Below are positions 9,713-22,485 of a stretch of 22,485 nucleotides of DNA, piece after piece. The stretch comes from a virus. The notes below the pieces were generated by a model. The model was not told the origin of the DNA and searched no databases. It saw nothing but the letters and a program-made list of their open reading frames with translations. The number at the start of each line of letters is the position of its first letter. The stretch's first letter is position 1. The position numbers and the translations under genes are program-made. The stretch spans positions 1-22,485 of IMG/VR virus record IMGVR_UViG_3300037882_000635, one strand, 5' to 3'.

Positions 9713-10294
9713 ATGAAAGCCGCATTTGCACATAATCAACTCAAGGCCGCGCTGTTGTTTGCGGCGAAAAACGATGTCCGCTATTACCTGAACGGCGTAT
9801 TGTTTCGTGGCGAAACTGGCGAACTGGTAGCCACTGACGGGCATCGCTGTATTGTCATCGAAACAGGCTGGCGAGCTGAAGGGGATGTCATCATCCCGCG
9901 CGAGCTTATTGAAAAAGTTTTGAAGGTAACCAAGGCCGAAGACACGGCAATTGAAATGTCGCTTGATGAATCCTCTAGAAAAATGGCATTAGGCGGGATT
10001 GTTGATTTTAAAATTGATGGAAAATACCCAGACTATTCAGCAATATTTGTGCAAGAAGATGGGTGTGTGCCGTCGCCAGCAATTCTAAATACATCATACA
10101 TTGTCGATGCCGCCAAAGCCAGAGCCTTGATAGCTGGCCTGAGTTCATTCAAAAACACAGGGCTTGCTTTCTGCGCTAAAGCGCCTAATGAAGCTGGCAT
10201 CGGTTATCTTGAAACTGTTGCTATCCTGCGGAATCATACCGCCTTTTATTTTGGCAACGGGCTTAAAATCGCAATTCAGCCGCTACGTGTTTGA
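9713..10294 (+). CDS. Shortened DnaN-like sliding clamp
   Basis: Residues 20-45 (NDVRYYLNGVLF, then ELVATDGHR) match domain II of the bacterial DNA polymerase III beta clamp, where E. coli DnaN has QDVRYYLNGMLF and ATDGHR. IDGKYPDYSAI at 101-111 matches the end of domain II. LNTSYIVDAAKARAL at 126-140 matches the last half of domain III (FNVSYVLDVLNAL), and the protein ends PLRV where DnaN ends PMRL. Domain I and the first part of domain III are missing: 193 residues against about 366. It probably tethers a polymerase or repair enzyme to DNA. The start has CCGGAG upstream. Confidence 0.85.
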   Translation: MKAAFAHNQLKAALLFAAKNDVRYYLNGVLFRGETGELVATDGHRCIVIETGWRAEGDVIIPRELIEKVLKVTKAEDTAIEMSLDESSRKMALGGIVDFKIDGKYPDYSAIFVQEDGCVPSPAILNTSYIVDAAKARALIAGLSSFKNTGLAFCAKAPNEAGIGYLETVAILRNHTAFYFGNGLKIAIQPLRV

Positions 10295-10446: not shown

Positions 10447-10524
10447 TGGAGCGCTAAACAGGAATCGAACCTGCAACCCCCTGCTTGGAAGGCAGGCGCT
10501 CTACCTAAATTGAGCTATTAGCGC
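10447..10524 (-). tRNA. tRNA-Gly (anticodon UCC), CCA encoded
   Basis: The minus strand folds as a full cloverleaf. The acceptor is GCGCTAA/TTAGCGC and the D stem GCTC/GAGC with GG in the loop. The anticodon stem is CCTGC/GCAGG with loop CTTCCAA (anticodon TCC), and the T arm is GCAGG-TTCGATT-CCTGT. The discriminator base is T and the terminal CCA is encoded. It would read GGA and GGG codons. From 10342 to 10446, between it and the terminator, nothing else is supported. Confidence 0.93.
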
Positions 10525-19076: not shown

Positions 19077-19394
19077 ATGAAAAGCGCAAACTGGAAAGTC
19101 GGTAAGGCAATAATTATGAATGACGGCGCAGTTGCGGTTGTGTCGCCGGACACCGAACAGCATATTGCTTTCGTAACGTGCCAAGCAAAATTTAAGCGAG
19201 GCGAGGGGTACAAAGCGCAATGCGCTGAACGCGATGCCAACGCCCGTCTAATCGCCGCCGCGCCTGATTTGCTTGAGGCGCTGGAAATAGCAGACGCATG
19301 GATTCGAGAGGCTCGTTCACTCGGCTCAAACATACCGTGTGAGCGCACATTAGAAATGAATAGCGCCGCCATAGCCAAGGCGCGGGGTGAATAA
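19077..19394 (+). CDS. Phage protein with NARLIAAAPDLLEALE motif
   Basis: A 105-residue protein. The N-terminus is beta-rich (NWKVGKAIIMNDGAVAVVSP). The middle holds YKAQCAERDANARLIAAAPD and the following LLEALEIADAWIRE, a helix pair very common at the ends of small phage early proteins of unknown role. The start is ATG at 19077 with GGAG eight bases upstream. An earlier ATG at 19035 would lie within about seven bases of the P3 -10 box and lacks a site. The stop overlaps the next start as TAATG. Confidence 0.78.
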   Translation: MKSANWKVGKAIIMNDGAVAVVSPDTEQHIAFVTCQAKFKRGEGYKAQCAERDANARLIAAAPDLLEALEIADAWIREARSLGSNIPCERTLEMNSAAIAKARGE

Positions 19395-19918
19395 TGAATA
19401 TCGAGCAAGCCATCGTGGATGAGGTCGAAAAGGTATTGAAAGTTGCGCGCGAAAAGTTCCCATCGTACGATGCGCCAGCGCCGGAAATAAAGTTCTATAC
19501 CAAAGGCCGCGCGGCAGGCAAGGCAACAAGTGGCATTCTAGTTTCATTCAATACCGCCATATTTGCCCAAGACCCTGAGCGATTCATCAGGGAAACAGTG
19601 CCGCATGAAATAGCCCATATCGTATGCTTTTATCTTAGGATTGATAGAGGTCACGGCAAAGCGTGGAAGCGCGTGTGCTTGGCTCTCGGCGGTAACGGCG
19701 AGCGACTGTACAAAGCCGAGTGCGCCAATGGCGAAAAGATTAAGTTCGATGGCATATCTCGAACCACAAAACGATACCAGCATATCGCAACATGCGGCAG
19801 ACAGATTATGCTGACCAGTGTTCGCCATAATCGAATCATGCGCGGCGCAACCTATACCGTCCTAGAAACTGGCGGGGAGTTAAACAAACAAACCTTTGTC
19901 GGAAATTCTGGGCAATAG
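19394..19918 (+). CDS. SprT-like zinc metalloprotease
   Basis: The 174-residue protein belongs to the SprT/Spartan group, which in eukaryotes cleaves DNA-protein crosslinks. The active site is VPHEIAHIVCFYLRIDRGHG with His71, Glu72, His75 and third ligand His87, followed by KAWKRVCLALGG. The C-terminal part keeps the family layout (YQHIAT, then SVRHNRIMRGATYTV) but only one Cys remains where a four-Cys zinc ribbon is usual, so that ribbon is probably lost. It is coupled to the upstream gene by TAATG. A role in clearing protein from phage DNA is inference. Confidence 0.88.
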   Translation: MNIEQAIVDEVEKVLKVAREKFPSYDAPAPEIKFYTKGRAAGKATSGILVSFNTAIFAQDPERFIRETVPHEIAHIVCFYLRIDRGHGKAWKRVCLALGGNGERLYKAECANGEKIKFDGISRTTKRYQHIATCGRQIMLTSVRHNRIMRGATYTVLETGGELNKQTFVGNSGQ

Positions 19919-22028: not shown

Positions 22029-22397
22029 ATGAACATTGACAATCTAACAATCGCAGAAGTAAAACAAATTGCACAATTGGCGAGTAGTTTTTCAAGCCCA
22101 GTTGAATCAAAAAATCATCATCCATTTGTAGGCCGTTACGTAATAGCACGTTGCTATTCCGCAGGGGTACATGCCGGAACGGTAGTATCTGTAGATGGCG
22201 ATACTGTGATATTAAAAGACAGCCGTCGCCTGTGGCAATGGAAGGCACAAGATGGAATTGCCCTGTCCGGCGTTGCACAAAGTGGCATCAAAAAAGACTC
22301 AACAGTTGATACTACAAACCCAGAAATTTATTTGACTGGTGTATGTGAGTTGATACCTTGCTCTAAAAAGTCTGAGGATTCTATCAATGGCGCTTAA
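22029..22397 (+). CDS. DUF6948-like phage protein
   Basis: A 122-residue protein with the pattern of a common small phage family. A short N-terminal helix (NIDNLTIAEVKQIAQLASSF) is followed by a beta-barrel-like core: HPFVGRYVIARCYSAGVHAG, then TVVSVDGDTVILKDSRRLWQ, a Trp-rich turn and a C-terminal strand (YLTGVCELIP). The name DUF6948 is from memory and should be treated as tentative. Members I recall are often followed by Gly-rich mini-genes, as here. AACCGAGG lies upstream of the ATG. It overlaps the next gene by 11 bases. Confidence 0.72.
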   Translation: MNIDNLTIAEVKQIAQLASSFSSPVESKNHHPFVGRYVIARCYSAGVHAGTVVSVDGDTVILKDSRRLWQWKAQDGIALSGVAQSGIKKDSTVDTTNPEIYLTGVCELIPCSKKSEDSINGA

Positions 22398-22485
22398 GTT
22401 CGTAAATGGCTCTGGCTCTGGCTATGGCTATGGCTCTGGCGATGGCTCTGGCTATGGCGATGGCTCTGGCTCTGGCTCTGGCTAA
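22387..22485 (+). CDS. Gly-Ser/Tyr/Asp repeat mini-protein
   Basis: A 32-residue frame, MALKFVN followed by alternating Gly and Ser, Tyr or Asp, ending in TAA at the window edge. The start is ATG at 22387 with a strong GAGGA eight bases upstream, overlapping the previous stop, so it is translated. Every Gly codon is GGC, and the variable codon is TCT, TAT or GAT. The composition suggests a flexible or surface-adhesive peptide. No function is known to me. The TAA is one base from TAT, so longer forms may exist in relatives. Confidence 0.75.
   Translation: MALKFVNGSGSGYGYGSGDGSGYGDGSGSGSG
22408..22485 (+). repeat. Tandem hexamer repeat, GGC plus TCT/TAT/GAT
   Basis: Thirteen 6-bp units in register. 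The second codon runs Ser, Ser, Tyr, Tyr, Ser, Asp, Ser, Tyr, Asp, Ser, Ser, Ser, stop. All change falls in the first two bases of the second codon, except the final TAA. The array is prone to slippage and may be where an assembly stopped. Confidence 0.95.

What the first reader, a model, noticed from the sequence alone, without database searches (positions are those of the whole stretch)
22387..22485. Translated gene built from a three-letter hexamer code
A strong ribosome-binding site leads into a 32-residue peptide made of GGC alternating with TCT, TAT or GAT only. Gly codons never vary, and Ser/Tyr/Asp differ by substitutions in two codon positions. Such regularity suggests slippage or recombination generating length and residue variants, for example a tunable surface or condensate-forming peptide. 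The final stop TAA is one base from the TAT unit, so the frame could open into a longer array.
Basis: partly seen in the sequence, partly recalled or inferred. Interest (0 to 1): 0.75.

Follow-up and report, generated by a model that had tools for sequence, protein, structure and literature searches.

The report
Phage Sm-like protein with shuffling Gly-X peptide
The repeat looks like a real, translated mini-gene that almost always sits beside a phage gene predicted to be shaped like the RNA-binding Sm/Hfq proteins, and its three-letter repeat is rearranged even between phages that are otherwise identical around it; what the pair does is not known.

Summary
Window 22387-22485 encodes MALKFVN, then (GGC-TCT/TAT/GAT)x12, Gly and stop, starting inside the 3' end of the preceding gene (DUF6948, 22029-22397). 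It is not a one-off: of 69 DUF6948 loci fetched, 65 carry an overlapping (Gly-X)n ORF (X mostly Ser/Tyr/Asp) and the other 4 have <30 nt of contig left. Conversely, 68 of 74 mixed Gly-X arrays found by DNA pattern follow a DUF6948-related ORF, against 2 of 23 simple arrays. AlphaFold/Foldseek models of two divergent branches both match Sm/LSm proteins. So the module is a predicted Sm-like protein plus a translationally coupled, acidic Gly-X peptide. Array order and length turn over fast: isolates Ymer and Amona differ by 12 units, with no difference in 1,705 and 4,046 nt of flank. Conservation is at peptide level: embedded start, stop directly after the array, Ala depletion (17 vs 176 expected), Ser kept while its codon changes. 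Function is inferred: an in-trans disordered partner of a nucleic-acid-binding Sm-like protein. The closest look-alike, VIPR guide RNA, fails its defining tests.

The parts
22029..22397 (+). DUF6948 gene, predicted Sm/LSm-like protein, 122 aa
   Evidence: Pfam PF22253 E 3.4e-27; AlphaFold pLDDT 90.5; Foldseek top hits Sm/LSm
22374..22378 (+). Shine-Dalgarno-like GAGGA embedded in the DUF6948 gene
   Evidence: Sequence; SD-like words at the same place in nearly all relatives
22387..22485 (+). Gly-X mini-gene, 32 aa plus stop; record ends on the stop, so its true length is provisional
   Evidence: Translation; counterpart in 65 of 69 relatives
22387..22397 (+). 11-nt overlap of the mini-gene start with the DUF6948 stop (translational coupling inferred)
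   Evidence: Overlaps of 8, 11, 14 or 17 nt in all but three relatives
22387..22407 (+). Non-repeat leader MALKFVN
   Evidence: relatives have leaders of 5-14 residues, mostly basic
22408..22482 (+). Array: 12 hexamer units GGC-TCT/TAT/GAT and a final GGC

Best explanation
A two-gene phage operon. Gene 1 (DUF6948) makes a predicted Sm/LSm/Hfq-like protein, probably a ring-forming RNA (or ssDNA) binder. Gene 2, started at a Shine-Dalgarno and ATG embedded in the end of gene 1, makes an acidic, presumably disordered Gly-X peptide (X = Ser, Tyr, Asp, sometimes Asn/Phe/His). The peptide acts as a detached, in-trans disordered tail of the Sm-like protein: through composition and length, not exact order, it tunes nucleic-acid binding (as the acidic disordered tail of Hfq does) and/or lets the protein cluster into a condensate through Tyr/Gly contacts. 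Because only composition and the G-X rhythm matter, the DNA array is free to expand, contract and reshuffle by slippage or recombination in 6-base units. Shown here: the gene pair, the overlap, peptide-level conservation, array turnover, predicted Sm-like fold. Inferred: disorder, ring formation, nucleic-acid binding, physical contact of the two products, tail-like or condensate role.
For: Linkage both ways: 65/69 DUF6948 loci, the rest truncated, and 68/74 mixed arrays vs 2/23 simple arrays. Same pair in isolated Pectobacterium, Iodobacter, Vibrio and Chlorobiaceae phages and gonococcal prophages; reversed order in L079 and one in-frame Sm-GX ORF in L112. Fold: pLDDT 90.5, top 50 Foldseek PDB hits Sm/LSm domains, prob 1.00, best E 1.1e-3; divergent branch modelled separately with nearly the same hits including 3by7; branches homologous by hhalign, E 2.4e-5 and 3e-14. 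Peptide-level selection: start overlaps and SD words, stop within 5 codons of the array in 50/51 (25% by chance), Gly at 1885/1910 phased positions, Ser as AGC in gonococcus but TCC/TCT elsewhere, Ala 17 vs 176 expected. All 51 complete peptides net negative, median -8. Order free. Precedents: Hfq acidic CTD (PMC5606850); Borg Sm proteins with tandem-repeat disordered extensions (PMC9879509).
Against: No direct evidence of expression, binding or interaction. Foldseek E-values are borderline (about 1e-3) and sequence search against the PDB finds nothing; only one divergent member touches the Hfq family, at E 0.023. Near-absence of G in third codon positions (no TCG, few GGG) hints at an additional nucleic-acid-level constraint or shared history. 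6 of 74 mixed arrays lack a detectable Sm-like ORF upstream.
Confidence: 0.45

Rival explanations
1. VIPR-like guide: the transcript of the array, not the peptide, is the product; constant GGY and variable NN positions are read non-contiguously by the RNA-binding partner to recognise DNA of competing phages.
For: VIPR guide RNAs are tandem GGY/NN repeats beside a phage RNA-binding protein gene with hypervariable NN (PMC13142463). Here too GGY is constant, two positions per unit vary, arrays differ between phages with identical flanks, and the partner has an RNA-binding-type fold.
Against: Period 6, not 5; embedded start and SD and stop right after the array; about 3 of 16 NN dinucleotides make up nearly all units, too few to address arbitrary targets; Ser is kept while NN changes from TC to AG in gonococcus; partner models as Sm-like, not RAMP; no exact match of the window's 12 NN in viral contigs with 0, 1, 2 or 3 skipped bases.
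Confidence: 0.06
2. Composition-only spacer or decoy with no specific tie to the Sm-like protein: a flexible polymer of free order whose gene merely rides in the same operon.
For: Order and length vary freely; Gly/Ser-rich sequence is expected to be flexible (general knowledge); in some phages the array is the N-terminal part of another, larger protein.
Against: Partnership with the Sm-like gene is nearly exclusive in both directions and spans very distant phages; the start-stop overlap is kept; one fusion ORF.
Confidence: 0.25
3. DNA-level element: the hexamer array is a recombination, replication or packaging site and the ORF is a by-product.
For: Array turnover is high; the window's early region carries ERF, YqaJ and SSB genes.
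Against: DNA dialects differ (GGC+xxT, GGC+xxC, GGT+xxC, gonococcal AGC for Ser, mixed GGA/GGT/GGC in L078) while the Gly-[S/Y/D/N] pattern stays; start and stop are placed tightly. Recombination genes were detected beside only 9 of 61 loci in a limited tblastn test.
Confidence: 0.08
4. The apparent variation is an assembly artefact: repeat collapse or chimeric assembly.
For: Ymer-genus phages were assembled from Illumina 300-cycle reads with metaSPAdes (PMC11445585); many metagenome contigs end inside arrays.
Against: Differences are in unit order and identity, not just length; Ymer and Abuela, two separate isolates, have identical arrays; gonococcal records given as complete sequences show different arrays between prophage copies with identical near flanks.
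Confidence: 0.07

Closest known systems
Hfq with its intrinsically disordered acidic C-terminal domain (PMC5606850)
   Same: Sm-type core paired with a disordered acidic segment that competes with nucleic acid; the segment varies widely in length and composition between bacteria.
   Different: Here the acidic part is a separate, coupled gene product made of strict Gly-X repeats; binding is untested.
Sm proteins with amino-acid tandem repeats in archaeal Borg elements (PMC9879509)
   Same: Mobile element, Sm-like protein, fast-evolving in-frame tandem repeats giving a disordered region.
   Different: Borg repeats are fused at the N terminus, in 5 of 19 Sm proteins, units of 4-17 aa; here 2-aa units, usually a separate ORF, near-universal.
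VIPR systems (PMC13142463)
   Same: Phage module; constant GGY plus two variable bases per repeat; RNA-binding-type partner; hypervariable array.
   Different: VIPR has 5-base noncoding repeats, a RAMP protein and free NN; here 6-base coding repeats, an Sm-like protein and three main letters.
DUF6948 (PF22253) and PHROG 18306
   Same: The upstream gene belongs to DUF6948; 25 of 49 relatives match PHROG 18306.
   Different: Neither record as shown by the tools names a function, a fold or the Gly-X partner.
Sm-like protein structure PDB 3by7 (cyanophage origin recalled from memory)
   Same: Among the best structural matches of the divergent branch.
   Different: Whether it has a Gly-X partner was not examined.

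Membership tests
DUF6948 (PF22253) | Match to the Pfam model over its gathering score (27 bits) | tested here: met
   22029-22394: 94.9 bits, E 3.4e-27, model 1-85/85
Sm/LSm/Hfq superfamily | Sm fold (bent five-stranded SH3-like barrel) | tested here: met
   Two separate AlphaFold models; top Foldseek PDB hits nearly all Sm/LSm, prob 1.00. Predicted fold only; E-values about 1e-3
Sm/LSm/Hfq superfamily | Recognisable Sm sequence motifs | tested here: inconclusive
   One divergent member hits Pfam Hfq at E 0.023; no PDB sequence hit
Sm/LSm/Hfq superfamily | Hexa- or heptameric ring and RNA binding | not testable with these tools
   Needs biochemistry
VIPR | RAMP (RRM-fold) Vipr protein at the locus | tested here: not met
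   The adjacent partner models as Sm/LSm; other window genes were not folded
VIPR | 5-base YNNGG repeats with freely variable NN | tested here: not met
   Period 6; NN almost only TC, TA, GA
VIPR | Repeat RNA is noncoding | tested here: not met
   Embedded SD and start overlap, stop within 5 codons in 50/51
VIPR | Gapped NN match to a competing element | tested here: inconclusive
   0 exact matches in viral contigs for skips 0-3; one array, exact matches only, no host genomes
Phase-variable contingency loci | Repeat unit not a multiple of 3, switching the frame on and off | tested here: not met
   Unit is 6 bases
Borg-type amino-acid tandem repeats | In-frame, fast-evolving tandem repeats | tested here: met
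   Unit 6 nt; turnover. Likeness of process, not a claim of common descent
Borg-type amino-acid tandem repeats | Repeat region is intrinsically disordered | not tested
   Inferred from composition only; no disorder predictor was run

The most novel reading that the evidence does not exclude
The array is both message and tool: its RNA (constant GGY, two variable bases per unit) is bound unit by unit by the Sm-like protein encoded just upstream, while the same hexamers encode the Gly-X peptide, making a hypervariable, phage-specific RNA-protein identity tag or recognition element of a kind not described before.
Probability: 0.05. Interest if true: 0.95.

Novelty: new variant of a known kind. Interest (0 to 1): 0.72.

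Why it matters
It turns two overlooked phage 'hypothetical proteins' into one widespread, testable module: a predicted Sm/Hfq-like protein with a near-obligate, separately encoded, rapidly reshuffling low-complexity partner. Near-isogenic isolates already exist, so one can ask directly whether the composition of a low-complexity protein, rather than its sequence, is what selection sees. It also explains why many phage contigs break at this point, and warns that gene calls and lengths there are unreliable.

Tried and rejected
Pfam, PHROGs and PADLOC on the Gly-X peptide: nothing meaningful. blastn of the window end against phages: no match. VIPR-like guide reading: four gapped target scans, all empty. 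RNA structure in the array: MFE does not differ from unit-shuffled arrays (mean z -0.14, 49 arrays). Rfam: only a tRNA in the window. Association with recombination genes: 9/61 loci by tblastn with a few queries, so not claimed as general. A GX-Sm fusion in MW202478 (L079) was rejected: the annotated ORF starts inside the array in a wrong frame (MAMALAMA...), and the Gly-X ORF lies in another frame upstream of the Sm-like gene. Within-array heterozygosity at Gly codon positions 1-2 is zero by construction of that test and is not used as evidence. The extra C-terminal domain fused to the array in gut phages was remembered as DUF7666, but Pfam gave no such hit, so it is left unnamed.

Full report
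Observation. The ORF at 22387-22485 translates to MALKFVNGSGSGYGYGSGDGSGYGDGSGSGSG*. After a 7-residue leader come 12 six-base units GGC-TCT/TAT/GAT and a last GGC. Tandem Repeats Finder reports a 6-base array. A run of 12 Gly-X units was never approached in 100 dinucleotide shuffles of the window (maximum 5). The uniform wobble base is not codon bias: TCT makes up 12% of Ser codons in other window genes but 7 of 7 here, so the units probably arose by copying. The start lies inside the 3' end of the preceding gene, with GAGGA 8 nt upstream and an 11-nt overlap. The record is a 22,485-base linear IMG/VR contig that ends on the stop.

The partner gene. 22029-22397 is DUF6948 (PF22253, E 3.4e-27). 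A scan of IMG/VR returned 69 relatives. In 65 of them a (Gly-X)n ORF starts at or near the end of the DUF6948 gene; the four without have 2-26 nt of contig left. Overlaps are 8, 11, 14 or 17 nt in all but three cases, so the relative frame is nearly always the same; a Shine-Dalgarno-like word of three or more bases is present in all but three. The same pair is present in isolates: eight Pectobacterium/Dickeya phages, Iodobacter phage PhiPLPE, Vibrio phage IKEMa6-1, Chlorobiaceae phage CV-1-33, and in Neisseria gonorrhoeae prophages. In the gut phages MT835900 and MT836871 and in a Monoglobus plasmid the array is the N-terminal part of a longer protein, again directly after DUF6948.

The converse. 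Of arrays with Tyr, at least two kinds of S/Y/D/N and at least 350 nt upstream, 68 of 74 follow a DUF6948-related ORF; of simple arrays (GSGSGS, GAGAGA), 2 of 23 do. This test uses profiles that include the divergent relatives found by inspecting these same loci, so the first-pass figure with the DUF6948 profile alone (59 arrays with an upstream hit, 42 with none, 21 without context) is the unbiased lower bound. The divergent relatives are homologous to DUF6948: hhalign E 2.4e-5 for DUF6948 against the first divergent branch and 3e-14 between the two divergent branches, and 4 of 10 members match the Pfam model, best 1.2e-8. In most of them, too, the Gly-X start overlaps the upstream stop.

Fold of the partner. 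AlphaFold on 49 DUF6948 proteins gave pLDDT 90.5. Foldseek against the PDB returned Sm/LSm domains throughout the top 50, probability 1.00, best E 1.1e-3, TM-score by target up to 0.72. The divergent branch, modelled from its own 10 sequences (pLDDT 81.9), gave nearly the same list including 3by7, an Sm/LSm-like protein. Sequence methods alone do not reach this, so the fold is a prediction, supported twice.

Selection is on the peptide. (i) Stops fall within 5 codons of the last repeat in 50 of 51 complete ORFs, against 25% for random codons. (ii) Gly is kept at 1885 of 1910 phased positions. (iii) If the first two bases of X varied independently, 176 Ala codons would be expected; 17 are seen. 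(iv) DNA dialects differ (GGC+xxT, GGC+xxC, GGT+xxC), and gonococcal arrays write Ser as AGC where others write TCC/TCT: the residue is kept while the bases change. (v) All 51 complete peptides are net negative, median -8. The near-absence of G at third positions remains unexplained.

Turnover. Ymer and Amona have 31 alignment differences in the array ORF and none in 1,705 nt on one side and 4,046 nt on the other; in units the edit distance is 12. L047/L048 have identical flanks and differ by six units; L050/L081 have identical flanks and differ by one unit, Asp to Ser. Gonococcal prophage copies differ in array with identical near flanks, though further upstream they diverge. The array ends are better kept than the middle in the Ymer-Amona pair. 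Caveat: the Ymer-genus genomes come from Illumina reads assembled with metaSPAdes (PMC11445585); long reads are needed for exact lengths.

Mechanism. The best reading is an Sm-like nucleic-acid binder with a detached acidic, presumably disordered partner. Hfq's own acidic disordered tail competes with nucleic acid for the Sm core (PMC5606850), and Borg elements carry Sm proteins with tandem-repeat disordered extensions (PMC9879509). Here the low-complexity part is usually a separate gene, coupled by overlap; one locus (L112) has both in a single ORF, though a sequencing indel cannot be excluded. Free order with fixed rhythm and composition fits a polymer whose composition is what matters, so a tail-like or condensate-forming role is plausible; neither is shown.

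VIPR. The recently described VIPR guide RNAs (PMC13142463) share the look: constant GGY, two variable bases. They fail as a home for this array on period (5 vs 6), coding nature, partner fold and alphabet, and four gapped target scans were empty. A dual RNA role is not fully excluded and is given as the novel case.

Verdict. Real, widespread, and not found described as a pair in the papers searched, with a well-supported anatomy and an inferred function.

Noticed in passing
window 22485 and loci L013, L015, L019, L021, L029, L031, L043, L049, L051, L056, L063, L065, L066: Contigs end inside or at the Gly-X array: it seems to break short-read assembly, so this gene is often truncated in viral metagenomes.
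   Followed up: yes
L079 1505-2077 (MW202478.1): The annotated CDS starts inside the array in a wrong frame (MAMALAMA...); the Gly-X ORF lies upstream of the Sm-like gene, i.e. reversed gene order.
   Followed up: yes
L112 4912-5622: Single ORF joining the Sm-like domain to a Gly-X array, with a second array just downstream after a partial duplication.
   Followed up: partly
L076, L078, L080, L101, L134, L136, L141, L165, L184, L187; L107 stand-alone: A domain of about 140 aa (FAHGETL...HRLTGSC...GG) without Pfam match is fused behind the Gly-X array; in L107 it is a separate gene upstream of the Sm-like gene.
   Followed up: partly
L094 about 810-1720: Three Gly-X ORFs in tandem, each starting MNIKIS(R/K)G, with no Sm-like ORF detected before them.
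   Followed up: no
L142, reverse strand, reverse-complement positions about 1650-2100: Two tandem Gly-X ORFs (MKYPKGYGYG...) after a large ORF that looks, by eye, like a metallopeptidase, in place of an Sm-like gene.
   Followed up: no
plasmid records NZ_CP119142.1 and NZ_CP119140.1: Listed as plasmids but 2.17 Mb long: evidently gonococcal chromosomes, with three copies of the module each.
   Followed up: partly
window 10450-10524 (-): A tRNA gene in the phage, by Rfam.
   Followed up: no
window 9713-10294: Short ORF matching the central domain of the DNA polymerase III beta clamp.
   Followed up: no
window 19394-19918: SprT-like family gene in the early region.
   Followed up: no
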